From assembly GCA_029706075.1 (NCBI GenBank), contig JAINUG010000085.1:3063392-3127391 (forward strand): a DNA stretch of 64,000 bases. Reading direction: 5' to 3'. The translations under genes and the position numbers were made by a program. Source of the stretch: Aldrovandia affinis. Taxonomy: Eukaryota > Chordata > Actinopteri > Notacanthiformes > Halosauridae. This document shows, piece by piece, positions 13,601 through 62,218 of this stretch (position 1 is its first letter; every line of letters begins with the position of its first letter). The notes under the pieces are model-generated. The model was not told the origin of the DNA and did no database searches. It saw nothing but the letters and a program-made list of their open reading frames with translations.

Positions 13601-15189
13601 GTTCTGACATGGTCATCTTATCTGCCCTCAGTCAATAGTGACTTTGTTTTTTCCCATCCCTTTAGAGTCAGTTATCTAACTCGAGTAAACATGCATGTAC
13701 GCAGATGTGCAATGCACCGCCAATGTTTTCCCCAAACAAAATTTCCATATAAACGATGCTGGCAAAGCATAATGGGTTCATCAGGAAAGCATCCTGTTTT
13801 GTTTTATGGAGGCTTTTGTTTCCTCTTCGTCTGTTTACACACGGACATCGAAAATAACAGAGAAATCCTGTCCATACAGGACGTGCATCAACACGCTCCC
13901 ACAGATAAGTCGGTCATGAAACAGATTTATACCTGTGTTTATTTTAAGCACGTTGTCCCTACGCAGCAATAGGCGTTATATTCACCAATCAAATGCGAGT
14001 GGTGTCACCTTTCAGTCGGACATTCTAATCTATTATCTGCAACAACGTACAGAAGGGAATACACTCACAAGTTTATTTTTAGTGCGAGCACATTCTGACT
14101 TCTCCCTGCGGAGTTTAAACAAGTTATACTATGTAAACAATGAACTGCACGCCGGAAATACTTCGCATGAATTGCAATAAGCCATTCTAATGGAGGACAT
14201 CCTGCGGCGTTTACAGAAACACTTCTAACTTCTATGTTTGGTCTGACCTGCGTCTTGAGTAGCATTTGCTCGTTTCTCGTTTTTTTCCTGCCTTCGGGGC
14301 ATATTCACGAGCGTCAATGCAGTAGATGACCAGCCCCGGCTGTTCTTTTCCGTAGCGCACCAGGACAACTGACACCGCTGTTAATCCTTCACCAGTATAA
14401 ACAGATGTGAAGGCGCTCCAGTTCATTCAGGCGGAGAAGATGTTCTACGAGGTGGCTCTGCTCGAGCTCACTGCTCTTCAGGGGAGTGCAGGTAAGTTTA
14501 CGCTTTACTTTTACACTGAGCTGGAATCCGAGGTTCACTGTGTTCCGCACTGAAGCGTCACGCCGCATTGACGCCAAACTTGCACCGTCGCCTGCAGATA
14601 ATTGGTTCCTTTTTAAGTGTTGTGTTTTGTTGTGATCATTTTAAGACGTTCAAATCGAACGTACAGTGAGCTTCATGTTTATACATTTGATAAACGGTGA
14701 CAAAAATAAAATACAAATTATAGAAGCAACGAAGGTGGCTCAGTGGCTCAGTTGGTAGAGCGCAGCGTTGGCAACGCTTAGGTTGTGGGTTCAATCCCCA
14801 CTGGGGCCACATATACTGGAAATGTATGCATTCAGTACTGTAAGTCGCTTTGGATAAAAGCGTCTGCTAAAAGGCGTATATTCAATATTATATTAAGGTG
14901 CACAAATGTGATTTTCATCAACATATAATGCGGTGCGAAAGTTTATTCTATTCAAATAATCATATATAGCCTAGGTATGGATTATGAATATAGGTATTTG
15001 GAGTTTACACCTACTTGCAGCAGAAATCCATTTTGACAGCATTAGTGCTATGGCTGTTACTACAATAACCTCTGGTAACACCCTGTTTGTGAATAACTAA
15101 GCTGATGTGTTAATGAGATGAGTCAGAGTTTTTCATTAGTAGATGACAGTCACAAACAGGCCCATACTCAGCTATGTGCTTAGAAAATG

Positions 15190-23000: not shown

Positions 23001-26000
23001 TGAATGTTTTTTAAAAACAGTGTTTTTATTTTGTTTTGTTTATTTTTACACTATAGCTTTAAGGAAATATATTAGCATGTAGTTATAGCACTGCACAGAT
23101 CATATCAGATCATTAACATCAATGGATACGTACAGATCAGCCACTCGCACAGTGCACCCTCACGATGAAGTTTGCGAGCAGAGACTAAATTACAATTGTT
23201 CATTTACAGGTGAAAAACATCATTGTGTACATTTTCCGTAAAATATATTTTACTGTGCAGGAACAGTGTGTAGAACAACCCCTTTCAAGCCAAGTCACTC
23301 ATCTGGGTGGCATAGTAAACGCAGAGCTGGATAAATGGCTTGTAGACCAGCTGCTGCAGCTGGTAAAAATGCCAGCTGAATGAAAGGACAAATAAATAAA
23401 CACGATCTCCTGTCTTTTATGGCTTGGCAGTTTGATGCCAGTGTTTTATTGGCCCTGTCACAATACGACTTTGCTGACATTCCAAAAATATTTTTTCATT
23501 GTCCTGCTGTGAAATACAGTGAGGTTTTGTCTTGACATGTCTTAGCTAATGGGCGGCCTTGGTGTTTCCTAGGCAGGGGTGCGCAGTGCACACATTCTTT
23601 GAGGAATGGGACAGGTCTGCATTAGTTATCGCTAAGCTTTGCTAAGGCAGGGGGACGCTGGAGGCTTTTTTGAAACTGAGGTCAGTGCTAGTGGAAGTGG
23701 CTCTCATGTGTTGCCCCTTGTTATTTCAGCCTTTCTTTTGTGCAGGCAATGTGTGTCATTAGTGAGTCAAACGGAGTCATTATGGAGCAGAGGTGGGAGA
23801 GAACATTTTGAGGTGGCATCCATGTAGAGATAAAGCACCACGACCATGTTTATGTGGCATAACAGTTGGTGTCGCACTCTCTCATTGCACCTCACTGAGT
23901 TGTAAGTGGATATTGCGTGTAGATGCCCCTCGCCATCCTTCTGCAAAGCAGTTTTAAAACCCCCTGTGCTAGTGCGAGTGAGTTGAGTGTCTCGGTTGTG
24001 TTTGGACTCCACAGACTCTCTGGGCCAGTGTGTGTCGGCGCTATCCAAGAGGTTCACTGCGACGGAGACGTTCAGTGACGCACTCAATGGCGCCCCACCG
24101 ACCCACCGGGAGAGGCGCTCTGAGGTCCGGCACCACCACAGGAAGGACCCCCATCCTCGACAGGAAGCCTCAAAACAGAAGGTGTCAGCCTTGTTACTCC
24201 AGATAACCTTGTAGCACTTCTTCAGACAGTCATTCATATATTTTCTTTTCTGGGACAAAGGATAGAGACTACAACTGAAATCAAGACGATATATATATAT
24301 ATATACAGTATATACTTTCATATAATAATAGTTTCTTAATTGACCTATTCTTAAAATCAGGAAAATCTAAATACAAAGTGCATATACAAGGCCACTGTTC
24401 AAAAACTACAAGGCAATTATAGTATGCTGAAAAAGTATATTATTTATACCCGTGTTTTGAGTACAACCAGATGAATTTGCCTTTGTCAGCTGTTTTGTGG
24501 CCCGTTGTTTCCCTCACACTGCACTAAACTTCCCAAAAATGACTGTGCTATTCCACTGAACAGGTATGAAACCAAGTGTGCACACACACACCATAGTGTC
24601 CACAGCTGTGACGTTGTGCCCTTCCACCTCCCTGTCTCTCTGTCCAGATCAGGGGTTGTAAAATCCCCACCTCTATCCTCAAGAGGCCCACGTGCAGCGG
24701 CACGGACTCAGACCTGACTCACCGGCGCAAACCAGAGCGGCGGGTTCGCTTCAGGGAGCCTGAGCTCACCGTACACGGTAAGAGCTGGGTCAAAGGTCAC
24801 ACTGGTGAGGGGTCATTTCAGCTCACAGTCCAGTCAGGCAGCTCAATTCCAAATCGCCTTCCTATGGTGGTAATCCCATTGAATCTTCAGCACCATTTCC
24901 CCTCTCTAGTTTCAGCACTATGTGGATTACATATGGAATGCAATGCTGAATGTTGAGTGCTGCCCTCTGCTGTCTCCACTCTGCACTAGCACTGACTGTG
25001 CATAGCTCTGTGTACCTGAGCTGTATTGTTTACAGTTGCAATAATATTAAGACTATTACGATAACTAATAATAACATTCAGATAGGAGTGGTATGAGAGC
25101 TGTATTTTAACCCACCCAAGTTCCACAAATGACTTTATTTTGATTCATTATTTTGTTGAATGTACATTCTTTGGAGCCTGATTTAGACTAGTGGACTCTA
25201 GAGGATAATGAAGATTATTAGTGACGTTTTAGTCCCTTGTGCTATTATCCTAAACCTCTCAAGATTAGTTTTACAATTCCTCATAAAGTGTTGACATTTT
25301 TAAATGTAAGCAATTAAAGAAAAATAATAATGAGGTCAATTAAAAAAATCGATTCACTTGAGGACCATAGTCACTGAGGATTGCCAAACGAGGGAAGGAA
25401 CGATATGTCTACATGATTTGCATTTACAATTAGCTGCAAAAGCATTGGAGGCACTTTGCAATCTGTAATGTAAGGGCAGTTACATTTATTAAAGCAGTAA
25501 TTTGCAGTTGCACTAGTCTGTAGTCACCAGTGTCTGTAGCCATAGCATCGGTTCAGGGCTACGGTGCCTGAGGCTGCTGTCACGGCGATGAGGAGGTATT
25601 TACGTACTATTCATCTGTCCAATTCACAGACATTCCATACAATGACTGTTTAGTAGGTAAGTAGGACTCATGGGGTGAACCATGGTTCACTAACCGCATG
25701 CAATTTTGATGTGTCACTCACATTGGCCAACAGTAATCATGGAAATGAGTGTGGAAGAGACACTGTGGAGCATGAGAGCAGAATATAAGGGTGGCAGTGT
25801 AGTGCAATGGTTAGAGAACTGGACTTGTAACTGAGAGGATGGTTCAATTCCCAGGTGGAGCACTGCCATTGTTCCCTTGAGCAAGGTACTTAATCTGAAT
25901 TGCTTCAGTAAAATATCCAGCAGTATAAATGGATTGTATTTAAAGAAATGTAAACTGTGTAAGTCGCTGAAAAATCTGGATAAGAGCATCTGCTGAAAAA

Positions 26001-27355
26001 TGGCACACACAAAAAAAAAAAGAGAGAGACTGCACTGTAAAACAGGGACAGCCTCCCCTACCCCACTCACTGCCTAAGATCACTTCAATACACACATTAA
26101 AAACCAAAGTTCCATTGGAAGCTATAATAACAATCGTGTTATCAATAACGATTATGAAGAAAAGGATTTATAAATGGGACTCACAAAATGTAAACAATTG
26201 AAATGGCAATTATTATTATTATTGGAAAAAATCATGCCTCATTGCGCAATTCACAATTTCATATCTCCCCCAATAATTGCTGTGATTTTGCTGTTTGTGG
26301 GTCGTTCTCAGGAGTGACATTGCATTTTGTCATTTTTCCGTTTAGCTGAATGGATTGTGCTCTAATGGTGTGTTATTATTTCTCAGTGGTGTGTAATGGT
26401 TTGTGTTATTCCCCTCCCAATTCACCTGCACTGGACGAGTTAAATGTTCTGTGTTGTTTATTTTACACCAGCGGCAAAACATTTTGCACTATATTTCTCA
26501 CTCAATGCATGCATGGCTCTACTGAGAATAAGTATATGTCATCAGAAATACACCATAACATGGGCATTTGTTTGAACTCATTTCAGTCAATGAATCCCTA
26601 TACCAGCAAACAGAACTCTTTCACAATTTTTAAACATGTTGCACTGTAGTTATAGCAACATTATATGAATATGGCAATCACAAAGGAGATTTTTTTAGAT
26701 AGGTTTCATGATACACTTGATAAGTGATGATATGCATCACGCACCATTGAGCATTCCAAATCAGCACTTGGAGGCCTGGCTGGAAGAATGGTGTCACCTA
26801 CAGGCTCAGGTTCAAGGATAAAACAACAACAATGGTTCAAAATGCTCAGTTGTGCATGTAGGCTCTTTATACACTGATGACACTGATACTGTCAAATCTA
26901 AATTCTTATTCTATTTGTGCTGCAGTATATTCTCCAAATTTTGCTCTGACTGCTTTGCAACAGGATAATATGTTTCTTTTAAAAACTGGGGAAGAGTTTG
27001 TGTGTTCTCCTTTAAATACTTTGATGCAGTTGAGTTTTCGCTGAAGACAGCCTAGTGGCAACTCGATTGAAATCAAATATAGAATGGAAAGCAGAGCAGA
27101 TCGTTATGACTGCTGTTAAAGAACCCGTGTTGTTCTGCTTGGGTTACAGCGTACGACACGTCCCCCAGCCGACCACACCTGGCACTCTTCACCTGCCTGT
27201 TCCTGCTGCTCTCCGTCCTGGGGGTGGCGCTGTACTGCACGGACCGCCGGCGGCCACAGCGTGTGTGCGAGGAGCTGGAGGCCATGCTGGCCGTTTACCT
27301 GCTACAGATGAAGCAGGTACTGTGGGGCTGCTGGATCTGGCTAACCATGCAGTGA
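4025..27355 (+). CDS. cnst-like: Consortin-family protein (consortin-like), nine exons
   Basis: Nine exons join with consistent phases (4025-4177, 8321-8351, 14405-14491, 17292-17412, 21569-21599, 21991-22099, 24015-24181, 24648-24777, 27150-27355) into about 344 residues. Residues 20-90 match the helical repeat of human consortin (CNST), including LCLHQIAE-type and KFIQ-type motifs. Residues 142-178 resemble a kinesin-light-chain-type TPR (FGNDHP). Residues 243-270 match consortin's ILK...RRVRF segment, and residues 287-306 are a single membrane helix followed by the ALYCT motif and a short tail. Consortin (about 725 residues) is a trans-Golgi protein that binds connexins and helps deliver them to the surface. 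This protein is half that length and lacks its long acidic middle. Position beside tmem179 suggests that it is the counterpart of mammalian C14orf180/NRAC, not of CNST itself. Family assignment is strong; orthology and function are inferred. Confidence 0.85.
4206..4230 (+). repeat. Hexanucleotide repeat giving three octamer sites
   Basis: The unit ATGCAA is repeated four times just inside intron 1, 28 bp after the exon 1 donor. It creates three overlapping copies of ATGCAAAT, the POU/Oct octamer. That octamers bind POU proteins is established; use of these copies is not shown. Confidence 0.8.
5393..5552 (-). mobile_element. L2-tail short interspersed element, copy 1
   Basis: Read on the minus strand it ends in the fish L2/SINE 3' tail (CTCTGGATAAGAGCGTCTGC and TAAATG). 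The body closely matches copies at 5806, 33582 and 38935. It is a short 3'-end-only copy. Confidence 0.65.
5806..5972 (-). mobile_element. L2-tail short interspersed element, copy 2
   Basis: Same body and tail as the copy 250 bp to the left, somewhat diverged. It lies in the same orientation as the L2-like reverse transcriptase fragment at 6604-7110, so it may be the 3' end of that LINE. Confidence 0.6.
6604..7110 (-). mobile_element. L2-like LINE reverse transcriptase fragment
   Basis: On the minus strand the translation includes SGSALAWFESYLADQSY, TGVPQSSVLGPLLFSLYT and, in a second frame, SYHCYADY. These are the conserved RT blocks of fish L2 (CR1-group) LINEs. The YADD catalytic box reads YADY and the frame is broken, so the copy is dead and 5'-truncated. 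Confidence 0.75.
7850..8110. promoter_or_regulatory. Possible conserved non-coding element in intron 1
   Basis: Non-repetitive AT-rich sequence packed with homeodomain-type cores (TTAATTAA, GTTAATTA, CAATAATCATG). It lies about 200-470 bp before exon 2. It resembles developmental enhancers of vertebrates, but only comparison with other fish would show conservation. Confidence 0.2.
8321..8351 (+). CDS. cnst-like: Consortin-like exon 2
   Basis: A 31-base microexon between TCTCTCTTTCAG and donor GTATCC. It encodes IAELFIEEKN and leaves phase 1. It aligns with IAESYFQEED of human consortin directly after CLHQ. Confidence 0.85.
8546..8582 (+). repeat. (TG)n microsatellite
   Basis: Pure TG dinucleotide run in intron 2 of the consortin-like gene. 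Confidence 0.95.
10527..10621 (+). repeat. Compound (TA)n(GA)n(G)n microsatellite
   Basis: Three adjoining simple runs: TA, then GA with one interruption, then ten or so G. They abut the left end of a Tc1-type relic. Confidence 0.95.
10622..11028 (+). mobile_element. Tc1/mariner transposon, 5' half
   Basis: The left edge carries GACAAAATAACAGAAACACC, which matches the terminal repeat of the Tc1 relic at 42 kb. Inside, the plus strand encodes KLTDRDRRTLNRIVAKHRKT, the second helix-turn-helix region of Tc1 transposases. The catalytic DDE part and the right terminal repeat are absent, so it is a truncated dead copy. Confidence 0.75.
11080..11470 (+). mobile_element. LINE 3' end (fish CR1/L2/Rex-type)
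   Basis: A C-terminal ORF segment containing YFIPAAIKLYNSSV is followed by a short 3' UTR with GGGATAATAAAGG and a tail of CTAACTAA repeats. These are typical of 5'-truncated fish non-LTR elements. It adjoins the Tc1 fragment. The clade is not settled. Confidence 0.6.
14405..14491 (+). CDS. cnst-like: Consortin-like exon 3
   Basis: Lies between acceptor AAACAG and donor GTAAGT, phase 1 to phase 1. It encodes VKALQFIQAEKMFYEVALLE, matching EKAMKFIQLERLYHEQLLAN of consortin. Confidence 0.88.
14733..14880 (+). mobile_element. tRNA-derived SINE with L2-type tail
   Basis: The head has RNA polymerase III A-box (TGGCTCAGTTGGTAGAGC) and B-box (GGTTGTGGGTTCAATCC) motifs. The tail is TAAGTCGCTTTGGATAAAAG followed by CGTCTGCTAAA. 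Further copies lie at 21333 and 51815. It is a SINE, not a tRNA gene, because the 3' half of a tRNA is missing. Confidence 0.85.
15191..15245 (+). repeat. (CA)n microsatellite
   Basis: CA dinucleotide run with one CGCG interruption, in intron 3 of the consortin-like gene. Confidence 0.95.
15270..16225 (+). mobile_element. CR1/jockey-group LINE, 3' part of ORF2
   Basis: The plus strand shows SGVPQ, LGPLLF, then INDLDRDVSIKIVTFADDIK with the FADD catalytic box. Further on come ANRMLGYIAKR, RGHRWKLVKRQI and FFFTQRVVDAWNSLPG, the typical C-terminal end. The frame changes several times and has stops, so it is dead. The 3' end (GATGGGCTGAATGGTCCG) recurs at 31795-31970. Confidence 0.85.
17016..17067 (+). 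repeat. (TG)n microsatellite
   Basis: About 25 TG units, roughly 225 bp upstream of exon 4 of the consortin-like gene. Confidence 0.95.
17292..17412 (+). CDS. cnst-like: Consortin-like exon 4
   Basis: Runs from acceptor GTGACAG to donor GTAGGT, phase 1 to 2. The translation ends DYERLAQLCIMSK, matching DFERLTKICATHQ of consortin. The first third is poorly conserved, so the acceptor is chosen mainly by phase. Confidence 0.75.
18507..19009. mobile_element. Non-autonomous hAT-like element
   Basis: A 503-bp unit bounded by inverted repeats AGGGTGACCAGA and TCTGGTCACCCT. It is flanked by near-identical 8-bp repeats, AGAAAGAC and AGAAATAC. An 8-bp target duplication is the hAT hallmark. It encodes no transposase. 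It sits in intron 4 of the consortin-like gene. Confidence 0.7.
21333..21440 (+). mobile_element. tRNA-SINE, 5'-truncated
   Basis: Starts at the B box (CACGGGTTCAATTCCC) and runs into the same body and tail as the SINE at 14733. The A box is missing. Confidence 0.8.
21569..21599 (+). CDS. cnst-like: Consortin-like exon 5
   Basis: A 31-base microexon after TTATTTTTTCAG and before GTATGT, phase 2 to 0. It encodes RPHLALEYSGK. Support comes from the strong splice sites and from phase agreement with both neighbours. Confidence 0.65.
21991..22099 (+). CDS. cnst-like: Consortin-like exon 6, TPR-like
   Basis: Lies between CTGTTTCAG and GTAAAC, phase 0 to 1. It encodes IRQKAFGNDHPITARSLELL followed by ATVYAEIGKTEYS. 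This has the spacing of a kinesin-light-chain-type tetratricopeptide repeat. Confidence 0.85.
24015..24181 (+). CDS. cnst-like: Consortin-like exon 7
   Basis: Lies between TCCACAG and GTGTCA, phase 1 to 0. It encodes 55 residues beginning SLGQCVSALSKRF and ending in a His/Arg/Lys-rich stretch (RHHHRKDPHPR). It has no clear match in consortin and stands where consortin has its long acidic region. Its reading frame stays open and in phase. Confidence 0.7.
24648..24777 (+). CDS. cnst-like: Consortin-like exon 8 with RVRF motif
   Basis: Lies between CTCTGTCCAG and GTAAGA, phase 0 to 1. It encodes TSILKRP and KPERRVRFREPEL, aligned with ILKKR and SKRRVRFQEIDD of human consortin. RVRF (residues 265-268) fits the RVxF docking motif for protein phosphatase 1; docking itself is inference. 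Confidence 0.9.
25790..26005 (+). mobile_element. tRNA-headed SINE, second family
   Basis: Head with A box (AGTGCAATGGTTAGAGAA) and B box (GGTTCAATTCCC). The middle holds TTGAGCAAGGTACTTAATCT and the tail is the L2-type GTAAGTCGCTGAAAAATCTG end. Better copies lie at 49687 and 60621 in reverse. Confidence 0.8.
27150..27355 (+). CDS. cnst-like: Consortin-like exon 9, membrane segment and stop
   Basis: Starts after GGGTTACAG in phase 1 and ends at TGA 27353-27355. It encodes a membrane helix (LALFTCLFLLLSVLGVALYC), then a tail with VCEELEAMLAVYLLQMKQ. Human consortin ends in the same way with LSVGGTALYCT and a short C-terminal helix. Confidence 0.92.
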
Positions 27356-31237: not shown

Positions 31238-37870
<6,633 letters not shown>

Positions 37871-38242: not shown

Positions 38243-38325
38243 ATTACATTTTACATTTTAAACATTTAGCAGATGCTCTTATCCAGAGCGACTTACAAGA
38301 TGTGCATAAATACATGGTATAAGTC
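38243..38325 (-). mobile_element. L2-tail short interspersed element, copy 4 (truncated)
   Basis: Carries the tail and first half of the family seen at 5393, and stops abruptly after CATAAATACATGG. Confidence 0.7.
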
Positions 38326-49463: not shown

Positions 49464-51688
49464 TCAGAGGGGCTGACCGGGGGCGAGCTGGCGGCGCTGC
49501 TCCTGGCCGTCAGCGGGGCTCAAGGAGGCCTGTAGCTGCCTCTGCTGCTCAGCCCAACGGGTGGGGATGAGCATGAGAGAGTTCTGGAGGGAGAAGGGCT
49601 CCTTGTACCTCCCCCTGGTCATGGTGTTTGTCTCCACCTCCAGGAGAGAGGCCCTGCTCCTGGGTCGCCTGGTCTCCTGCAAGGACTTACATTTACATTA
49701 CATTCACATTACATTTTAGGCATTTAGCAGACGCTCTTATCCAGAGTGACTTACACAGTTTACATTTCTTTACATATAATCCATTTATACAGCTGGATTT
49801 TACTGAAGCAATTCAGGTTAAGTACCTTGCTCAAGGGTACAACGGCAGTGCCCCACCTGGGAATTGAACCTGCAACCTCTGAGTTATAAGCTGCACTGCA
49901 CTGCCAGCCCTGATGCCCCTGTGCTCCTGGAGGGGCTCTTGTGGGGGCCGATGGAGAAGCCCTGCATGGTTTCGCTGAGGGTGCAGGAGGTCAGGATCTT
50001 GGCCTGGTCCACGGCCTCCTGGGAGAGGACTCCACCCTCTCCTCCAGCCTGGAGTCTGAGGCCCTCTGCTCACACAGGGCAATGGATGAACAGTGTCATC
50101 CAACCAGGTGAGTAGGGTTTAAGACGTGCTATTGGACCAGAGAGCTGCCTATCACCCACAGAGGCTCCAAGAAGGAGTGGGAGCCGAAGGGGCTGGTGGA
50201 TAAGGAATCCTGGGAGAATAACTTATTTTGCTTTTTGGTCAGGGCGGGAGGCACTACTCAAAGCTTTGGCTACCTGCTGAGGCACTGGGTACATCTCCTC
50301 AGGCACTGCTTTGATGTAGTCCATTTGATCTTCATCCCACAAATAAATATAAACCACATGCAATGAATCAGAGCCATGGCCATTTGTCAGGGTTAAAGTC
50401 AATATAACTAAAGCCTGAATTAGGGAAAGACGGAGAATTTGTGTCTAAAGCAATCAACTACCCTTCACATCAATACTAATATAAAGTATTCAGGATAAAC
50501 CTCTCTGTTCATCAGAAATTAGTCTTCCATTTCATCCATTTTAATGGCATACCATGGTCAGGAGAAAGGAAGTTGTCACTCTCCATTAGACTGTCAGAGG
50601 CAGATAGTGCTGATTGGTTGTCTTCGTTGCTATAGAATTGACGATGGAGATTCAGATCTGCGCCTGTTTCTGACAGATCAAAATAAATGACAATAACAAT
50701 AAAGAATATACCTAATGTTACGACGTGATTTATCTTAATAACCTTTCCATTGTGTCACATTGTGTTGTATCAATTTAAATATAAATAACTCATACAGATT
50801 TAATTAAATTGTAACAATTATGTGTGCCAAATATTACTATTGAGTAGAACAAACTTTAGTGCCATTACCTACCCTCTTAGAGTAGTATCTAGAGTAAATC
50901 CTGTAGCGCCCTCTGCTGTCGGAACATTGTCCCTGGTCATCACAACTATCTGCTCTCTTCCATACCTCATTATGAAAATAATGAAATGTTCAAAATTAAA
51001 GTACACATATGTTGATGTTAAAACAACTGGCATTGTGATATGAATCACTTTGACCATAGTAATTGTATACCACAAATGTATGATAAAGGCTAAAGACTGG
51101 AGCTCAAAAAAGCCTGTAATTCATCCCTCCCAGAACTTTAACAGGACTCAGCATACCAATCCAGGCCATTCCTGTGATTTCCTGTTCAAGCTCATTCCAG
51201 ATAAACATTTCTGCTTGTGGCTGAGCTTCTCCACTCTGACCCACAGCTTGATCAGAGAGTACACTGTGACTGAGTTCTGCATGAGTCTGACAATCCCGAA
51301 ATGAAAAAGCAAAGCAGTTACAGGACAAAACAAACAACAATGTTCATATGTGTACGATTTTCTCATGGTGCATGACATAGGCATAATGAGTGGGGGGGAC
51401 AGGGGGGGACATGTCCTGCCCAAAATTCAAAACAGTCATATCTGTACATCCTAATAATTTGTAGATATAAAACATTCCCTTTCATTATGCCCCCACCCCC
51501 CAATATTTAATATGTGGTTACGCCCTTGGTGTATGAAGAGTGAAGCAAGCCACCTTGGCCAGTCTTTCCATGTGGGAAATACAGTACCAACACGGGTCAG
51601 TCTCTCACAGCCACGTAGGCCATGTCTGATGATGTCATCATTCTCTACCTTGTTTTCCTTTAGGGGGGTCCAGGCCTCACTGATACAC
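49464..51688 (-). pseudogene. ahctf1-like: ELYS-like exons, end of helical domain
   Basis: Exon 51688-51588 starts CISEAWTPLKEN, like CMVEAWNFLRQH, and its split arginine codon fits the previous donor. An exon at 51286-51157 may contain AEMFIWNELEQEITG, but its phase does not fit. Near 50.04-49.92 kb DSRLEERVESS and VDQAKIL lie in different frames although ELYS has DPRLRERS and LDQYGKIL in one. At 49675-49464 TNTMTRGRYKEPFSLQNSLM resembles TGTVLTRSVFINNVLS. A SINE separates these last two blocks. Confidence 0.62.
49687..49908 (-). mobile_element. SINE (second family) inside the ELYS-like relic
   Basis: Near-complete reverse copy of the SINE at 25790, with tail TTTAGCAGACGCTCTTATCC on the left and B-box complement GGGAATTGAACC near the right end. 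It lies between the last two recognisable ELYS-like blocks. Confidence 0.85.
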
Positions 51689-51814
51689 CTGTGTGACCAG
51701 AGGGGGACACTCAGACATTAGGTCATTCACACAGACAGCCACGGACAAACAGACAGGAAGACATGAAGAGAAGAAGAGAAAACACATGTCACTCATTGTG
51801 CTGTACAGCTGTAA

Positions 51815-51956
51815 TATATGCCATTTCACAGACACTTTTATCCAAAGCAACTTCCAGTAAAGAATGCATACATTTTTCAGTATATGTGGTCCCAATGGGA
51901 ATTGAACCCACAACCTAAGCGCTGTCAACGCCATGCTCTACCTACTGAGCCACACA
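51815..51956 (-). mobile_element. tRNA-SINE, reverse copy
   Basis: Reverse copy of the SINE at 14733: GGGAATTGAACCCACAACCT is the B-box complement and CTACCTACTGAGCCAC the A-box complement. It sits in an intron of the ELYS-like relic. Confidence 0.85.
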
Positions 51957-51985
51957 GAACTGTGTGTGGGCATGTGCAGCTGTAC

Positions 51986-53885
51986 CTGTTGTGCAGGAAG
52001 ACCTTAACATAGAGCTTGAGGTCCTAGACATTCCCAATTGCAGGTTTATTCCAGTAGAGGTACCTGAGAGCACTCTGGGCCTCTCCTCTCCTTAGCAACG
52101 TCTGTATGATGGGGCGGTGCTGCCAGGAGAGCAAGGGATGTCTGGACCTGGGGCTCAGTAGCAAATCCATTGACTGCTGCAAGTGAATTGGAAGAACATG
52201 AAGTAGTACTTCTGGTCAAGATGCACAACACAGGAGCAGATACAGTATGTGCTATGCACTGTGGTAAAGGTCAGTTTGACCACTGAACTGAGAGACATAC
52301 AGATGTCAGGCTACGGTCCAGCAGACAGAATCCTCTGATCTGTTGACAGGAAGGCTGTGGGATGGAAAAGGCACGGGAGAAGGACTTCAGAAGGTCGTCC
52401 CTGCACTGGAATAAGTTGGCAACATCCAGGACAAAGTACATAAGCTGTCAAGGTGAGTTAAAGAGCATTCACTTATATATGCACACATCATAAACATTCT
52501 TGACATCAAAAACATTTGACACTTTTTGGGCAACATCACTGGTGTTGCTAAACTGAAGAGAATAACGTTGGATGTGTGTAAGAATATATTTTAAACAGAT
52601 AAAAACAAATACCAAGTACAATTTGTCGCATTATGGTAGACAACTATGACCAGTGTATTAAATCGTTTTGTGAAGTGTTTAGCAGCTCTGAGGGACACGG
52701 GAGTGGAAGGATACAGCGGGGTGTCACCAGACGTCAGGGCTGTGGGGAAAAATGCCACAGTGTCGATCCGTGGCACCAGCAGCAGCTTCAGCAGAGCCTG
52801 GAGACAGGGCGGAAGGTAACACTGCGTGGTATAATATATATAAAATGATTCTACCGGGGTGTCACCAGACATCCATACAGGCCCGTGTCGTTTGTTTACT
52901 TCAGCCACCATACCCTGGAACAGAGAACTTCCCTTCTCCTCATCCTTCTCTACCTCCTGCCTAATCAAAATCAGACACAGAGACATAAAACGTCACCCCC
53001 ACTAAACAGCTGTCATTACATCATCTCTGGCCAGAACAAATGGCTCAAACCTATCGATTACCCTGGTGACTGCCGGGAAGCCCTCCTATGGTTCTGATCC
53101 ATCTCCCGCCACATCTGAGAGAGAGAGAGAGCGCAGAAATGTTACAGCTAATTGCCGTTCTTTCATCCCATGTGTTTAATCAGTCTGCTGAGAATTCTAC
53201 TTGATGGGAAATGATTAGACTAATGGCAACTTGTTTTCAGTAATCCCCAATTAATATAAGGCTTTTAAGGCTTATCTGTTTGATGGCATCATGACAAAAT
53301 CACAACAAAACAAAGCCTCGACCTGATTGAACACAATTTGTAATTCATTGTAACTGAAGTGTGGAACTCGACTAATGGATTTGGTCACTGAGGATTCAAA
53401 TCCCAGTGCAGTGCATTTAAGGGATTGGAACATTAAACACATATGCATATGCGCACACACACACACACACACACACATACACACACACACACACACATAT
53501 TGCTGTTTTGGTTCATTGATTGTTCATACTAATTACACAGCCAAGTTGCTCATTATGAGCAAAATTATGTACTACCGGCAGAAATGGTTTATAATATTAT
53601 CTTACCTATTGGCTATAAAAGTCAAGAGGTGAATAATTGTTTTCAGTGAATGTATTGTACTGCAAATATTTGTATGTGTATGTATGCATTGTATACACTG
53701 TATAGATTTAATTTGTAGCGATGGACCTGCAGTCACATTTATTAGACTGCTGTGAGAAAGGTCGGTGGTGATACCAGGAGACTTAGGCAGAAGTCCTGTG
53801 ATGCCCCACCACTGCACCAGGCAGCCCAGCCAGAGGTGCTGCTCCAGGGCCCGGTGTTCCTGGTCCCATCATCCCCCATCTAGCA
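51986..53885 (-). pseudogene. ahctf1-like: ELYS-like exons, central helical domain
   Basis: Exon 53885-53737 holds LEQHLWLGCLVQWWGITGLL (ELYS VVSHLICQYAQVVLWFSHSG). A 52-base exon lies at 53114-53063, and an exon at 52960-52855 has GMVAEVNKRHGPVW. The block from 52821 has LPPCLQALLKLLLV. Exon 52444-52301 has SFSRAFSIP and QQIRGFCLLD, matching SFPTVFAIS...KLIQGFWLID. Exon 52176-51986 has SMDLLLSPRSRHPLLSWQHR, then ALRYLYWNKP, matching GLDLLFHPATAKPLSWQHS and ALRYIQTMKP. Two stops interrupt otherwise aligned codons. Confidence 0.78.
53452..53498 (+). repeat. (CA)n microsatellite
   Basis: CA run with one TA interruption, in an intron of the ELYS-like relic. Confidence 0.95.
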
Positions 53886-54026
53886 CTGGAGTCCATGGAG
53901 GTCCATGCATCACACGGGCATTACCGAGAACCAAAGGAGAGGTAAGGACATTCATCACCAATTAGTGCACATTACAAAATGACCGGTTTTTTTTCAGAGG
54001 TGATATTCAGAATACAGCTGGTTTAC

Positions 54027-55190
54027 CTGGCCAGTGGTGGGAGGAGCTTGACTGGTTCCTCCCCCACCTAGTGAGTGACAGCAGGTTCCTCAGCCTCTGC
54101 AGGAGGAGGTGAATCTTGATGAAGGACTGCTGGTCCAGATACATCCACAGGCCCCTGCAGCAGCTGAAGCCTGGAGCCAGGGTGGTATGGTGAGATGCTA
54201 ATCAGTGCCATGGAGCTCAGTGTTGTCTGATCATAGTTTAAAAAACATGATTATGACTGATGATGTACTTTCACTTTGCAGATTAATTTATTGCTGTTTA
54301 TTGCCACACATGGTTGCGGTTATTTACTAAGATTCCCTCCAAAATCAAATTGTATTGTCTGTCCTAAACTGTCTCGAGTAGATAGTATATTTTAATGCAT
54401 TATTTTAGGGCCTTTGGAATCAGGAGTGGGAGGTTATTGATTCCCATACTTACAGGGAGTGATTAACTCTGTCTTGTTGAAATCAGCCATTTTCTTAATC
54501 CAGGCACTGAACTTTGCCAAACTATCATCCACATCCGCATCATCTACATCAAACATTGACAATGAGGAGGGATTCAGAAACAAGGTGTGAACTATATATT
54601 AAGTCTACTGTTAATGCTACGTTTATAGATTTACATAGCAGCTCTCTAACTTTTAGCCAGGAGGTCCTGAATGCAGTGAATAATTGCTCTCATATTGCTA
54701 TTGGCCAGAGCCTGGGCCCATCTACTCTCCTCATCCAAAGCGGTCTTGGTACTACACACTGTGGTGGAGAATGATGGGGCAGGGTCAGCGCTGGACATGT
54801 TACGTCAGACATGGTCAGGGAATCAGTGCTCTTTGTATGAATTAAAAGCTGTTAACCATTTGAAAATGTTGCCATGGCAACCTGGTCATATCTGCAGCTG
54901 CTGGATGCATCCTCAGGGGAAAGCAGAACCGTCTCCACTGATGGAAACATCTGGAAGTGCGATATGTAACAGAAGTCCTCAGGTCTTGCACGGAGACAGA
55001 GAAATTGTACTTGAGCCCTGGCTTAATTTAGCCTACTTCAAGCGTATCCCCGTTCAGGGTGGTTTGTCCTGAGTACATTCTGCTGTTATTGGGTTGGGAG
55101 ACGTCCTGGTCCCAGCCCTCTGATAGAGACCTTGTTCTTTCCAGATGCATGGTTTGTAATTTGTTTGTAATTGCCCTACGAATCGCCAGG
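54027..55190 (-). pseudogene. ahctf1-like: ELYS-like exons, end of propeller and start of helical domain
   Basis: Four blocks. The one at about 55190-55037 contains RTRSLSEGWDQDV and TTLNGDTLE, placed like HERSLNRG...STYNFDATC of ELYS. The block at 54758-54651 has KTALDEESRWAQALANSNMR (ELYS [20 protein letters not shown]). The block at 54543-54454 has SLAKFSAWIKKM. The block at 54170-54027 has GLWMYLDQQSFIKIHLLLQR, like CHFMDPQTIQSIQQCYLLLS. The last three are all phase 1 to phase 1 or compatible. No stop lies within them. Confidence 0.7.
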
Positions 55191-55199
55191 TCAGATGTT

Positions 55200-58100
55200 C
55201 TGTCAATTGGCCTCTATGTAACAGCTAGTGGAAATGTTCCCCACCTGGAATAATCTTTAATTACAAACCGTTCAAGCTCCAACGTGGCCGCCTTGTTGTA
55301 AAACCTCACTCAGGTATGTAAAATCCCTCATTTCCATTGCATGGCCTCTAGTCTCTCTGCCCAGAGAATGTGGAAAATGAGTAATTAGGTCTGCCCTACA
55401 GAGTGGACATGCCAGCACTCCAAAGCCCCAGAGGCAATAGAACAAATTCCCACTGATTTATGTTGTTGTTTTACAGCTTGTAATTATTCTTAGCTTCGTT
55501 CATTAGAATGAAATCACCAGTTCACTGAGAGCAGGACAGAGTACGATGACATTTCAAGTACCTTTAACTCAAATTATACAGTTAAGGATGGTGGAACACA
55601 GAGTAATTACAACTGTAGCTGCAGGCTGGCAAAAAAACATACCATGAGGCTTCAGATCCTCCTGGCCTTAAATACAGATGAAAGCCATAGACACCATACC
55701 TCTCTGTCATATTCAATGTTCATTCAACCTGCAGGGACTCAGGTCTAGGGCTGTGAACAATGAGCATGGTGATTCCTACCCCATTCTGAATCACCACAGG
55801 AAGAGACCTGCCATACCAGTCTCTTCCAATGGTGAAATAGATACAGTACCATTGAATTTGGACAGTTCTGGGCCAGGCTGTGCACAGTGCTCCAACTCAG
55901 CAGCACTTTCTTCCACCTCTGGGGATCAGATCATGGACCTTCTGCCCCTTCCAGATTTGGTGACTGCTCTCCTGTGTGTACAGCGCGTGCATTACCCTTG
56001 CCCAAGCTCCTTTTGGGCCCGCTAATCCAGTAATCTCAGCCTCTCTGAGGCTCCCATTCGGTGCACTGTGTGTATGAGCCTCCTAGAGGGTAGGAAACAC
56101 AGCCCGAAAGGTAAGTGTAATAGTAGGTCGATCACAAAACTCAGGGTAACCAGCTACTTTGGAGGGAAAATGAGACGGAGGTGTAGTCATGTAGCACGCC
56201 CATTCAGTGTATCCCAGAAGGTTTGAAAAACAATTTTTACCAAGCAAATGTGTTTATCAGGGAATTAACATGCACCCTACAGGCTCAGATGAGGGATATA
56301 AGCTTAGGTGTTTGATTTCATTAAGCCTACTATCTTTGGACATACTTTGGTGCATACATCCTTTTGTATATCAGAGCAATGGAGGCCTGTTTCTGATCAT
56401 GCAGAGTTCATTGACTGTACAGCACAAGGAGGTTGGCCTCCTGTTACAATTTGACAGGGCCATGTGGTTTAAAGATTCTAAAGGCTCTAGTTTTGTTGTC
56501 AAATTGCAATGTGCAGACAGTAGTATTAATCCAGGACTGAGACACATTAAGGAATGCCCTTGTCCATTCTGGTAGTTTTGTGACAAGAGACTAGCACACC
56601 TGTGGTGCAGTTGTAAAAGAGGTTGGTTTAAGGAAAAATAAATTACTTATGCTAAAATAAATGCTAATAAATTACTTGACGCTAAAAACTGCCCACATTC
56701 TCTTGAGTGACAACATTCTCTGAGCTTGTCCTTGCAGAAAGTTGAATGGTGGTGGGTTTGAAACAGGCTTCATACCGATGTACAATTGCGACCAGTCCTT
56801 TGTTTCAATGGAGAGAAAACCACGAAGGGCACGAGCCGAACTTGATGACGTGAATGCGACTGACCAATCACTGCCAAATTGAGAAGAACAAAATATAACA
56901 ACATTGTGGACAATCTACCGATAGAAGAGTATGAAAACTAAGTGCACATTCTTTTAAGAATATATTTTAGGATTATTAAACACAGTACTTATGTAGCCTA
57001 CTCAGGATTTATCCTGAGATTAGCTAGCTCAGCCATGAGCTCATAACTGGTCAGAATGGTCAAATAGCGGTTTGATAGAAAGTTATCTGTGGACGTTGCT
57101 TTCTGTGTGATGGTAAAAACTGCCCTCCATGATCTTTAATGACATCATTCATTGAGTGTGTCCTCGCGGAAAGTTGAACGGCCAATAAACGTCATTTTAG
57201 AATGATCTTGCTGACTATTTCCGCATTTTAAATAAAGTACAAACTTTTACGGATATAAAATACGGATATGATCCCCTGTCCCATAGCTCAACAATGTAAT
57301 CAGTAATCGCTTAATTGTTTTTCATTCGTTACTATTCGTCGTTATAAGATCTTTCCTCTCCCTAGCAATCATATCCGACCTCTGCAATCGCTCAGGGCAT
57401 TGCCCCGTGATATGCCGGACAATTATGTAATTATATAGGTAGGCTATTTGTTTTGTAGTGAACGTTTAATATTTAACATAACAGAAATCAGTGCATACAT
57501 AAGTATATTAAAAAAACGACAATTATTACACAGGTGTAGAGATGGTCTCTATCTAATTCGAGTACTGTACATTGAACCATTCCCTACCAGTGCAAAGCTC
57601 AAATAGTTTGAACTGCTTAGTTGAAAACAGATTGTATTTCAAATTGTCATTTATTGAACGATTTGCTTCAGAGTGAGGTGAAATACTGTGCATACGTGCC
57701 CATTAATAACGTCGCCAAACTAGCACATAACGCTATTGAGTTAGGAGGCGGTCTGGTTGGACGAAAATGCAAACGAATTATCTCAGACGAAACTTGTAGT
57801 CTAAATAAGCACTGGGTGGCAGCAATGAGGTCTAATTCATGCGTCCCTTCTGTGTTTGAGGTCAGTGCGTTCTAGTCACATTTGGCTGCACTTTCACACC
57901 TAATGTGTTATTAATGTATTGCCATTATTTATCAGGTCCAAAAGAAAAATATCTAAGGCCGATTCAAGCACTAGCCTCCACACAGAATTAAGCGGGTAAA
58001 CAGGTTACAAACTGTTTATTTTTAGCATGTCTACACCTATGCACACTGACACACTGCTCTGCTGTCAATGCTGTAGGCAGATTTGTGCAGGTGGCAGAAG

Positions 58101-58200
58101 GCTTTTCTTCAAATCCTAGAGGCCTGATTAATGATTAAACAGGATTATGTGGAGAGTCAGAGACAGGGAATGGAAGTCACTTTGATGCGGCCACCGGCTC
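55200..58200. other. Region upstream of the ELYS-like relic, little recognised
   Basis: If the relic kept its N-terminal propeller it should lie here on the minus strand. A minus-strand open stretch near 55.73-55.93 kb (AAELEHCAQPGPELSKFNGT) is the only weak candidate. I could not align it with confidence. No other gene or repeat was recognised. Confidence 0.3.
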
Positions 58201-58218
58201 TGTCCCTTTTTCTTACAG

Positions 58219-58332
58219 CAGGAGTACTCCCTCTCAGCACTCCTGGCTCATATTGATGATGCTCATTAGAAAACAGATCCAACAGATAGGACTGTCTCGA
58301 CAACCCCGACAATGTAAACTCTCCCAGGAGAA
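58219..58332 (+). other. Possible upstream exon of the peripherin-2-like gene
   Basis: A 114-base segment has a strong acceptor (CTTTTTCTTACAG) and a strong donor (AGAAGGTAAGGG) on the plus strand, 780 bp before the peripherin start codon. One frame is open but I recognise no protein in it. A 5' UTR exon is the simplest reading. Transcript evidence is needed. Confidence 0.35.
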
Positions 58333-58470
58333 GGTAAGGGCTATTTCTTTTCTTAGTCTGGGGGATAATCTTCAACCAGAGTAGTCTGGCAATGATACTG
58401 CATTCATTGTTCAGTGCTTAATATATATATAAATAAATTGGGTCACCTTACCCAAACAAACAAACACAAT

Positions 58471-58561
58471 TCAAACTTGCAGAGATGAGTAGTCATAGTC
58501 ATTTATAATAATAGAATCTCCAATCAAACTTGCAGAGATGAGTAGTCATAGTCATTTATAA
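58471..58561 (+). repeat. 38-bp perfect direct repeat
   Basis: The same 38 bases (starting TCAAACTTGCAGAGATG) occur at 58471-58508 and 58524-58561 with no mismatch, separated by 15 bp. It looks like a recent tandem duplication. Confidence 0.95.
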
Positions 58562-58604
58562 CAGTGCCAAAAACTGCCTTTTTAATATCTGCTGTATGAT
58601 TAAG

Positions 58605-58638
58605 TACTCTTGTATGATTAAGTAATCATACAAGAGTA
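58605..58638. repeat. Perfect 16-bp inverted repeat with 2-bp spacer
   Basis: TACTCTTGTATGATTA and its exact complement flank AG. It could form a short cruciform or hairpin. No function is evident. Confidence 0.95.
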
Positions 58639-59114
58639 AGTTAGCACATTCTTTGCATTACCCAAAGCTTGTCATCATAGACCACTATATAATATGTTCT
58701 TAGACATTGGCAGATGCACAATAAGCAGTGATGTGTTATTTGGAATGGACACATTTAATCAGTAATTGATTATAATGATTTGTGTTGTTCATAGAGAATA
58801 ACTGAGAATGGCAGTGTTTATGCAGCCAGAGATATTTACTGCAGTCGTCTTCATATGTGGTGTTCTGTTCCTCAGGACTGCTGCTACGTACCGTAGCCAC
58901 CGTAGTGGAAGTTTAAAAATACCTCTCCTAAGCTACTTATGAAGGCCTCCAGAAAATAGCTCCCATCTTCTTCCCTGTCCCTCCCTTCCCCTAGCTACAC
59001 TACAGCCCCTGCCCTGTCATCTTCCCCTCTCCCTCCCTCCCTTCCCCTCTGTGCAGCACAGGGATCGCTGAATAAATCTCAAAACCCACAAAAAAAAAAA
59101 AAGGAGCATCCAAG

Positions 59115-59695: not shown

Positions 59696-62218
59696 GTAAG
59701 TACTATGGACTACAGTGCCTGTGGCACTTACAAAGCAAGCACGTTATATTAAAATGTGAATCTGGCACAATCTGGCTTCCAACCTAAGATTATATATAGA
59801 CCTTTATTGCATTAAGTAGGTGTGGATTAAAATAAATAAGAGTGATTAAGAAATTAATTCAGATTAAGGTTAAGTGATTATGACATTGCTGGGTCTTTGC
59901 TTTGCTTTCACTTTGTACACTAGAACATGTCTCCAGCCCAGTCTATCACCAGTCTTTCCCTGATGAGCTGCACACTCAGATAATCATAATGCCATGTTAT
60001 TAAATTGAATTCATTTAGTCTGGGACATCCCACCATTGCATGGACCTGAAACCTTCTCAACATTGTTACCACTAAACAGGCATCATTCATCTTATATTAG
60101 CAAGGCTATACCACAAAAAAATAAAATAAAAAATAATTATTATTGTTAATTCAAAATAATTGGGGTATTTAGTTGTGTAGGCTCAACAGTATTAAAACAT
60201 TGCTTCAGGCTCAACAGTACAACTCTTAAGCACATCTGCCTGGGTCCCAAACACCTCCTCGGAATCTTCATCTCAGCTTTGAATCCAGTCCTACGACTCC
60301 ACACATTCAAATTCACTTTTAATCCCTCCCCCACAGTCGATTTAGAAGCAATGTGGAAGGGAAGTACCTGAAGGACGGGGTGCCCTTCAGCTGCTGCAAC
60401 CTGTACTCCCCCCGACCCTGCATCCAGCACCAGATCACCAACAACTCGGCCCACTTCAACTACGACTACCAGACGGAGGAGCTGAACCTGTGGAGGAAAG
60501 GCTGCCGGCAGGCCCTGCTGGAGTACTACACTGAGATCATGCAGTCCATTGGCCTGACCGTTCTCATCATCTGGCTCTTTGAGGTGGGGATAAAGTGGGC
60601 ACAGGCATGCACCTACTCATACATTACATTACATTACATTACAGGCATTTAGCAGACGCTCTTATCCAGAGCGACTTACAGTTTACATTTCTTTTACAAT
60701 ACATTTATACAGCTGGATATTAACTGAAGCAATTCAGGTTAAGTACCTTGCTCAAGGGTACAACGGCAGTGTCCCACCTGGGGATTGAACCTGCAATCTT
60801 AACGTTCCAAGCCCAGCTCCCTAACCATTATACCACACTGCCTGCCTCATACAATACACATTTTAATTCGCTCTGCTGGAATCAGAGGTGGAAACTCAAG
60901 AAGGCCTGGTGCACACGATGGACCCTCTGTACATGTCTGGGTTTCTAGGTCTAAACCTCATTGCTCAGGCGCACATCAGATTAGTTCCAGCAAGTTAAGA
61001 GTGTATGGATGTCACATAACAATCGATGCCCGTGAAGCTCTACTTCCCCACATATGAATTTAAATGTATATCATCATCTGTTTAGCAAACACCCTTACAG
61101 TCAATTCAGTTTTACTATGACATAGTGGATCACAACAACAACCACTCCAGCAATAGAACAGATATATTGGTCCTGACAGCTTCCCTCATATTCACAAGTG
61201 GTTAATCTCAGGAGCCCCCCAGTAGAACCATGCCTCTTCATCTTCCATTAATCGTGTGTATTAAGTCTATAAGTGCGAGATACACACTGCACTGAATGAC
61301 TATCACAGACTCAAATGCAGTCAGTGTGGTTAATCTGACAGAGTAGTCTTTTTTGTCTCTCTATTCTTAGCATGATTAATGCCATTGTTCATTCACTCTG
61401 CTTGTTCCCTAAACCCACAGTAAATCTCTGTTGTGGCACAATACCAGGTTGTCCATGCTTAGCTCTGTCCCGATACACTGATATTGTCTTACAGAGGGTC
61501 ATACATGACCACTCCTCTTTCAAAGCGATCTGTATAGCTGTGCTGGTCCAGGTATTATAACATGCTATCTAGTCACAGCCAGGGCCACAAGGCAAAGTGT
61601 GGTTACAGATAATCCCAGGAAACCAAAATGGTTCCTAACGGTTTCCAAACAAGAGACAAGAGAAGTCCAACCTGTGCAAGAATAATTTGCTAATGTGTAG
61701 TACTTTGGGATTTAGGATTATTTCTCCCTCCTCCGAGATCTAGACATCAACACAGCCTGCATGTTGACAATCCTGTAATGGAAAAAATTGAACACATTAA
61801 ATGTGAAACAGGTGTATTAGTAACTGGAAAACTTTAAACAATATGTATGTGCAGAAAATACCCAGGTTTGAGTGAGCTGTCAACACAATGGCCTTGTGTG
61901 TGCAACCAATGGCAGTGTGCTTATTCACAGTCCCTCCCTCTCCCTCCGTAGGTCTCTGTGCTGACGGGGGTGCGCTACCTACAGACCGCCATGGAGAACG
62001 TGCTGCGCCAGGGGGACCCGGACTCTGAGTCTGACGGCTGGCTGCTGGAGAACAGCTTTGTGGAGACGGCCCGCACCAACTTCAACATCATCAAGAACCT
62101 GGGAAAGTGCAACCAGATTGACACTGCCAACAACGGCGACCCCAACATTGACGTCCCCTCTACTGCCCATTACGGCCCAGACAATGTTCCCCCCAAAGAA
62201 ATCCCTGTGGCCAGCTAA
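59115..62218 (+). CDS. prph2l: Peripherin-2-like photoreceptor tetraspanin
   Basis: Three exons (59115-59695, 60337-60583, 61952-62218) join in phase to 364 residues, with the classic PRPH2/ROM1 gene structure. The start [18 protein letters not shown] and the C-terminal end PVAS fit the second peripherin of birds and fish (CRDS2/prph2-like) better than PRPH2 itself. There are four membrane helices (about 17-41, 61-81, 98-123, 262-284). The large loop carries C150 (PGRCF), the CCG motif at 165-167, C213, C214, C222 and C250, and the N-glycosylation site N229. C150 in PRPH2 makes the intermolecular disulfide. The family shapes rod and cone outer-segment disc rims and forms oligomers with ROM1. 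No lesion is seen. The exact ortholog name is the main doubt. Confidence 0.92.
60337..60583 (+). CDS. prph2l: prph2-like exon 2
   Basis: From acceptor CCCCCACAG to donor GTGGGG, phase 2 to 0. It encodes the rest of the loop ([23 protein letters not shown]) and the fourth helix up to IWLFE, as in mammalian PRPH2. Confidence 0.95.
60621..60845 (-). mobile_element. SINE (second family) in prph2-like intron 2
   Basis: Near-complete reverse copy, beginning with an (ATTAC)n tail, then GGCATTTAGCAGACGCTCTT, and ending with the complement of the tRNA head (CTAACCATTATACCACACTG). The terminal pentanucleotide repeat is typical of the 3' end of a SINE. Confidence 0.9.
61952..62218 (+). CDS. prph2l: prph2-like exon 3
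   Basis: From acceptor CCGTAG to TAA 62216-62218. It encodes [18 protein letters not shown], the [15 protein letters not shown] segment shared with peripherins, and a divergent cytoplasmic tail. Confidence 0.95.
   Translation, partial: VSVLTGVRYLQTAMENVLRQGDPDSESDGWLLENSFVETARTNFNIIKNLGKCNQIDTANNGDPNIDVPSTAHYGPDNVPPKEIPVAS

What the first reader, a model, noticed from the sequence alone, without database searches (positions are those of the whole stretch)
49464..55190. A lost ELYS (AHCTF1) paralog between tmem179 and the peripherin-2-like gene
At least ten minus-strand blocks match ELYS in order, with matching residue spacing and mostly consistent intron phases. I know of no described ELYS paralog in vertebrates. 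Two stops (53869-53871 and 52024-52026) fall inside otherwise aligned codons, so the gene looks recently lost here. It may still be intact in other fish. If so, that would be an undescribed nucleoporin relative, apparently without the AT-hook tail of ELYS.
Basis: partly seen in the sequence, partly recalled or inferred. Interest (0 to 1): 0.85.

Follow-up and report, generated by a model that had tools for sequence, protein, structure and literature searches.

The report
Decayed sister gene of ELYS
This fish genome seems to carry the broken, intron-bearing remains of an ancient sister copy of ELYS, a protein that starts nuclear-pore assembly on chromosomes, a hint that vertebrates once had two such genes.

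Summary
Three neighbouring minus-strand exons (52444-52301, 52176-51986, 51688-51598) match ELYS residues 776-919. Joined, they match Pfam ELYS at E 1e-19. Their intron positions and phases equal those of the fish's own AHCTF1. Exons at 54729-54651 and 53885-53775 are probable. The stops TGA 53869-53871 and TAG 52024-52026 are present. The other claimed blocks, the beta-propeller and the C-terminal tail are not above chance.

The fish's own AHCTF1 lies on another contig. In the 1.22 Gb genome no third place matched significantly. So it is a non-processed paralog, not a piece of AHCTF1. AHCTF1 stands beside cnst; the relic's window holds a second consortin-family gene, plus tmem179 and prph2l. 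That points to block duplication, most likely the early vertebrate (2R) round. A second tmem179-prph2l locus has 2 kb where the window has 24 kb, and no significant ELYS match. Codon-position conservation suggests it long coded for protein. It now looks like a pseudogene. Whether it is intact in other fish could not be tested here.

The parts
51598..51688 (-). Relic of exon 21 (ELYS 887-919), phase 2 acceptor; downstream end and donor lost
   Evidence: Top in-window match for ELYS 885-925 (score 49.0, next 38.0); adds 12.9 bits to the joined Pfam ELYS match; phase 2 as in own AHCTF1; strict exon test failed for it because no donor is kept; sequence
51986..52176 (-). Relic of exon 20 (ELYS 825-886), canonical AG/GT, contains TAG stop
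   Evidence: tblastn E 2e-9; rank 1 of 4331 AG..GT candidates; splice sites shown
52024..52026 (-). In-frame TAG stop in exon 20
52301..52444 (-). Relic of exon 19 (ELYS 776-824), canonical AG/GT, no stop
   Evidence: rank 1 of 4264 candidates; Pfam PF13934 E 5e-4 alone; tblastn Xenopus E 0.005, human E 0.31
53775..53885 (-). Probable relic of exon 15 (ELYS 650-683), contains TGA stop; ...WWGITGLLPKSP. Start may be 53879 (exactly the expected length)
   Evidence: ranks 1 and 2 of 4288 candidates, scores 9.7 and 8.0; rank 1 for ELYS 645-700; in order. Moderate support only
53869..53871 (-). In-frame TGA stop in probable exon 15
54651..54729 (-). Probable relic of exon 12 (ELYS 542-571)
   Evidence: rank 1 of 4197 candidates, score 8.7 against 7.0 for the next, and in order. 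Moderate support only; not among the top in-region places of the local search
55825..55974 (-). Weak candidate for exon 11 (ELYS ~500-530, KVHDLIPRGGRKCC), with a stop
   Evidence: rank 1 (43.0; next 38.0 at 56500-56649, best outside the region 35.0), but noise over all segments reaches 43.0; expected splice structure not found
51888..51960 (-). tRNA-like SINE head between exons 20 and 21 of the relic
   Evidence: ARAGORN tRNA-Val; Rfam tRNA 39.4 bits; SINE nature is my reading
35115..35417 (-). tmem179 first coding exon, one boundary of the interval (name recalled)
   Evidence: 81% identical copy at C1823
59115..59696 (+). prph2-like (tetraspanin) first exon, other boundary (gene name recalled)
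   Evidence: Pfam Tetraspanin E 9e-24; 73% copy at C1823
24612..27352 (+). Second consortin-family gene (pieces at 24612 and 27110), likely C14orf180-like; paralog of cnst
   Evidence: pieces joined by eye: Consortin_C E 3.9e-9, 36.9 bits over cut-off 30; DUF4658 25.6 bits, below its cut-off 27; single pieces stay below the cut-offs

Best explanation
The feature is the decayed remains of a second, paralogous AHCTF1 (ELYS) gene. SHOWN: at least three exons (probably five) of the alpha-helical domain survive in order, with the splice sites, intron positions and phases of AHCTF1. The frame is broken by stops, and the 5' (beta-propeller) and 3' parts cannot be recognised. The real AHCTF1 of this fish is on another contig, and no further copy was found. 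The window and the AHCTF1 locus both carry a consortin-family gene. A second tmem179-prph2l locus exists whose 2 kb gap is too small for the gene. INFERRED: the copy arose by block duplication, most likely the 2R whole-genome duplication, since human also has C14orf180-TMEM179 on 14q32.33 and CNST-AHCTF1 on 1q44. It was kept as a working protein for a long time, was lost from one of the two teleost-duplication (3R) copies of the region, and later lost function here. It probably has no protein product today. While intact it would most likely have bound the Nup107-160 (Y) complex as ELYS does, perhaps as a tissue-specific variant; that last step is a guess.
For: ELYS homology. Own AHCTF1 with 24 modelled coding exons and C-terminal matches further on on C1767, and no third locus with E below 0.3 in the genome. 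Same intron positions and phases at 775/776 (acceptor side only in the relic), 824/825 and 886/887. Relic equidistant from human, Xenopus and own ELYS (48/139, 49/139, 49/140) while own-human is 86/143; over 196 columns of five exons, at sites where human equals Xenopus and own differs, the relic sides with human/Xenopus 11 times and with own 6 times. Codon-position identity relic-own, exons 19-21: 69, 94 and 52 of 141, and for exon 20 well above codon shuffles at positions 1 and 2. cnst beside ahctf1 (Consortin_C E 2.4e-32, L028) and a consortin relative in the window (E 3.9e-9). 3R sister locus C1823: tmem179 and prph2l coding starts 2.0 kb apart against 23.7 kb here; no significant ELYS match there. 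A second cnst copy at C458 without any AHCTF1 hit. Human gene sets: C14orf180 and TMEM179 among the genes of 14q32.33 intervals (PMC6764480, PMC8971628, passages) and CNST, SCCPDH, AHCTF1 in a 1q44 interval (PMC4061518, passages).
Against: Exons 13, 14, 16-18 and 22 onward and the whole propeller cannot be recognised, so gene-wide colinearity rests on three strong and two moderate exons. The 2R age rests on synteny and equidistance: no fish, shark or lamprey paralog and no outgroup could be compared, and the relic's branch is long. Orthology of the window's consortin-like gene to C14orf180 is not tested by a tree. A further tmem179-like gene (47%) lies near an adenylosuccinate synthetase gene on C2011, so which tmem179 matches human TMEM179 is open. 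The genome search scores only its best candidates, so a further weak copy, also at C458, could be missed (note). Base errors in the assembly are possible (frame disagreement in own AHCTF1 exon 8), so single stops carry limited weight.
Confidence: 0.82

Rival explanations
1. A teleost-specific (3R) duplicate of AHCTF1 that was moved to this place and diverged fast.
For: Other genes here do have two copies at 3R-like divergence (tmem179 81%; prph2l 73%); the relic's branch is long, so distances cannot date it exactly.
Against: The likely 3R copy of the cnst-ahctf1 region is at C458 and shows no AHCTF1 hit; the relic's window has its own consortin relative; it is no closer to own AHCTF1 than to human ELYS.
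Confidence: 0.09
2. A recent segmental or processed copy of the species' own AHCTF1.
For: None beyond the homology itself.
Against: Introns with matching phases exclude a processed copy; only 35% residue identity to own AHCTF1 in exons 19-21.
Confidence: 0.02
3. A still working, shorter gene: stop-bearing exons are skipped or the stops are assembly errors.
For: Exons 19 and 20 keep good splice sites; only two stops in the 201 codons of the five exons (about nine expected at neutral saturation, my estimate).
Against: No propeller and no C-terminal part found, exon 21 lost its donor, exons 17/18 unrecognisable, SINE-like insertions in the interval.
Confidence: 0.05
4. Chance similarity only.
For: True, as far as I can tell, for most of the ten claimed blocks.
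Against: E 1e-19 for the joined exons, though the joined letters were selected by me; single-exon E 2e-9 and E 4.3e-6 in a whole-genome search need no joining.
Confidence: 0.01

Closest known systems
AHCTF1 / ELYS (MEL-28), nucleoporin, Pfam PF13934
   Same: alpha-helical domain residues 776-919, intron positions and phases, order
   Different: about 35% identity; no beta-propeller or AT-hook tail found; stops in two exons; different chromosome position; not the species' AHCTF1
Lost ohnologs (whole-genome-duplication partners) in vertebrates
   Same: paralogous neighbourhood, retained introns, decay in place, no trace at the sister 3R locus
   Different: this one is the partner of a nucleoporin gene found in one copy here, and I found no description of it
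C14orf180 / CNST pair (consortin family) next to it
   Same: the same two-block arrangement of paralogs as AHCTF1 / relic
   Different: the consortin relatives show no obvious damage in the parts seen; the ELYS copy does

Membership tests
ELYS / AHCTF1 protein family | PF13934 domain above cut-off | tested here: met
   joined exons 19-21, 71.7 bits against 28.8; single frames stay below the cut-off
ELYS / AHCTF1 protein family | N-terminal seven-bladed beta-propeller | tested here: not met
   no hit for ELYS 1-495 above controls in 54900-59060. tblastn does find own AHCTF1's propeller exons, but those are far less diverged, so a decayed propeller could be missed
ELYS / AHCTF1 protein family | C-terminal AT-hook / basic tail | tested here: not met
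   human residues 1041-2266 give nothing below E 0.4 in the window
AHCTF1 gene itself (orthologue) | locus beside cnst | tested here: not met
   AHCTF1 is at C1767 beside cnst; the window is C2411
Non-processed pseudogene | introns kept at the parent's positions and phases | tested here: met
Non-processed pseudogene | disabled frame | tested here: met
   stops at 52024-52026 and 53869-53871; missing 5' and 3' parts
Non-processed pseudogene | no protein product | not testable with these tools
   no RNA or protein data
2R ohnolog of AHCTF1 | paralogous neighbours at both loci | tested here: met
   consortin-family gene at both loci; more neighbours not tested by tree
2R ohnolog of AHCTF1 | tree places it outside bony-vertebrate AHCTF1 | tested here: inconclusive
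   four sequences only, no outgroup; equidistant; the one tree made is unusable

The most novel reading that the evidence does not exclude
Vertebrates had two ELYS genes from the 2R duplication, and the second, at the tmem179-prph2l locus, is still an intact nucleoporin paralog in some living fishes or sharks, giving some cells a variant Y-complex or chromatin anchor.
Probability: 0.42. Interest if true: 0.68.

Novelty: new member of a known kind. Interest (0 to 1): 0.5.

Why it matters
ELYS seeds nuclear-pore assembly on chromatin and, to my knowledge, is treated as a one-gene nucleoporin in vertebrates. It is needed for life: the zebrafish flotte lotte mutation in it is recessive lethal, and a cited title reports peri-implantation death of mouse mutants (PMC2570612, passages). 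A second vertebrate ELYS that stayed under protein-coding constraint long after duplication would mean that pore seeding once had two versions, and that losing one copy could be followed through fishes by looking at a single named interval, tmem179-prph2l. It also gives a clear case of a gene pair (consortin plus ELYS) duplicated as a block with very different fates.

Tried and rejected
Spliced alignment with low intron cost produced long chains over the whole interval, but controls scored as high, so those chains were dropped. The ELYS 821-865 secondary hit at 54806-54940 (41.5) is within noise. An exon 7 candidate at 58369-58228 ranked first in the strict test (7.3 against 6.3) but did not show in the local ranking. 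Exons 17/18 looked convincing by eye (ALLKLLLVPRIDTV after a good acceptor) but did not raise the Pfam score. The last reader block (49697-49464, RSRASLLEVETNTM...) resembles neither own nor human C-terminal ELYS significantly; low E-values of own-locus frames at 49710-49899 are repeat sequence that also matches elsewhere in the window (25.8 and 60.7 kb), and Rfam puts a UnaL2 element there. A four-taxon tree used a wrong frame for exon 21 and had support 52; it is not used. An alignment of own AHCTF1 made in the wrong frame was discarded and redone exon by exon. Searches of viral contigs and genome contigs for other ELYS found none (46 and 225 pattern matches, none confirmed; two short peptide patterns each). 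Literature: searches (17 papers; 2; 6; 0; 2; 27, 10 listed), seen as titles and starts of abstracts, showed no paper on a vertebrate ELYS paralog; passages of PMC4920428, PMC7764596, PMC2570612 and PMC6027884 name none, and 'ELYS-like' in the last is the domain of the Drosophila protein. Open-licence papers only.
Full report
WHAT IS THERE. A six-frame search of the window with human and Xenopus ELYS (residues 1-1071 and 1-1065) gives one strong hit, minus strand from 52179 to about 51985, E 2e-9 and 7e-10, with the exon before it, 52441-52310, at E 0.005 for Xenopus and 0.31 for human, and the one after it, 51693-51598, at E 0.40 for human. phmmer with a raw frame finds the PDB ELYS chains at E 1.2e-6 and 2.1e-6, and Pfam finds PF13934 in two of three frames. 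Joining the three exons gives PF13934 at E 1.1e-19; the third exon contributes 12.9 bits, while two further candidate blocks contribute nothing. In a search of the whole genome with human ELYS the relic's exon 20 is the only significant place outside the real gene, E 4.3e-6.

HOW MUCH OF THE CLAIM HOLDS. Controls were run because short exons match easily. Spliced alignments of the N-terminal, C-terminal and propeller parts to the expected stretches were no better than to control stretches. Ranking of six-frame chunks put the region first for ELYS 500-545, 645-700, 776-824, 824-887 and 885-925 (5 of 12 segments). Ranking of exon-shaped candidates (AG before, GT after, right phase, length within four codons) put the region first for exons 7, 12, 15, 16, 19 and 20 of 23, with exons 19 and 20 far ahead (54.3 and 118.7) and the others at 7 to 10. 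Exon 16's candidate is out of order. I accept exons 19, 20 and 21 as certain, 12 and 15 as probable, 11 as possible, and the rest as unsupported.

THE REAL AHCTF1. The genome of the window is 1.22 Gb in 2576 contigs. Its own AHCTF1 lies on C1767, minus strand, with 24 modelled coding exons for residues 1-1069. C-terminal matches follow, the last with the human ...RRKML end at about 4442930, and a 1168-residue open frame lies in that part. It is 68.1% identical to human over 1067 residues. Of 26 matches, 23 are on C1767, one is the relic, and two are insignificant (E 0.37 and 1.8). The relic's exons used as query find themselves and own exon 20 (E 1.7e-8), and nothing else below E 0.9. The tool scores only its best candidates, so very weak copies could be missed.

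SAME GENE ARCHITECTURE. The junctions 775/776 (phase 0), 824/825 (phase 0) and 886/887 (phase 2) are the same in own AHCTF1 and relic; for the first only the acceptor side can be seen in the relic. The acceptors of exons 19-21 and the donors of exons 19 and 20 are canonical; the donor after exon 21 is gone. This excludes a processed copy.

WHEN AND HOW IT AROSE. On C1767, cnst (Consortin_C E 2.4e-32; plus strand) ends about 6 kb from the last C-terminal match of AHCTF1, which is on the minus strand. In the window a second consortin-family gene (E 3.9e-9 for its joined pieces) is on the plus strand and the ELYS relic on the minus strand, with tmem179 between them and prph2l beyond. Two neighbouring gene families duplicated in the same relative orientation point to block duplication. 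Human gene lists put KIF26A, C14orf180, TMEM179 and INF2 in a 14q32.33 interval (PMC6764480; PMC8971628 lists all but INF2; passages) and CNST, SCCPDH and AHCTF1 in a 1q44 interval (PMC4061518; passages), so the split of the two blocks most likely predates bony vertebrates. I take this as 2R, an inference. The relic is equally far from human, Xenopus and own ELYS, as expected for an old split, but its long branch makes this a weak clock. The fish also has 3R-like copies: tmem179 (81%) and prph2l (73%) on C1823, coding starts 2.0 kb apart against 23.7 kb in the window, without a significant ELYS match (best E 0.12 with own ELYS and 0.32 with the relic), and a second cnst on C458 without an AHCTF1 hit (the place itself was not read). 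So of four possible positions one holds the gene, one a relic, and two show nothing.

WAS IT EVER A WORKING GENE. Between relic and own exons 19-21, codon positions 1, 2 and 3 agree at 69, 94 and 52 of 141; in exon 20, 30, 45 and 27 of 63 against 17.6, 16.1 and 21.8 for shuffled codons. Position 2 is conserved and position 3 is near background, the mark of protein constraint. Part of this is due to own AHCTF1's constraint, and exons chosen by protein similarity are biased in this direction. Exons 12 and 15 show no such pattern (12, 13, 11 of 26 and 14, 14, 16 of 32), which fits decay or wrong assignment. Only two stops occur in the 201 codons of the five exons; a fully neutral stretch at saturation would hold about nine (my estimate). 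Together: long constraint after an old duplication, then loss. The date of loss is not measured.

WHAT IT DID. ELYS binds the Nup107-160 complex through its propeller and helical domains (PMC7764596, passage). The best-preserved relic exons are in that helical domain, so an ELYS-like role while intact is the simplest guess. Nothing here tests it.

NOVELTY. My searches of an open-licence library showed no described vertebrate ELYS paralog (listings only). The thing is a new example of a known kind, a decayed duplicate, of a gene for which I found no partner in print.

Noticed in passing
window 24612-27352 (+) and G000 C1767:4436150-4436909, C458:2200050-2201629: The DUF4658 (C14orf180-like) gene beside tmem179 matches Consortin_C when its pieces are joined, so it and cnst look like duplicates of one gene.
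   Followed up: partly
G000 C1767 about 4464450-4464590 (own AHCTF1 exon 8): The reading frame inside this exon disagrees with its flanking phases, though the protein sequence is well conserved; probably an assembly base error.
   Followed up: partly
window 52717-52732 and 52855-52870 (-): A perfect 16-base repeat where exons 17/18 of the relic should be, perhaps a small rearrangement.
   Followed up: no
G000 C2011:326783-351348 and 663316-665074: A tmem179-like gene (47%), an adenylosuccinate synthetase gene and a prph2-like gene share this contig, perhaps another 2R copy of the block.
   Followed up: no
window 5399-5876, 14737-14880, 21385-21438, 38256-38308, 49714-49767, 60639-60692: Seven UnaL2 LINE 3' elements, one directly behind a tRNA-Ala gene or SINE head.
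   Followed up: no
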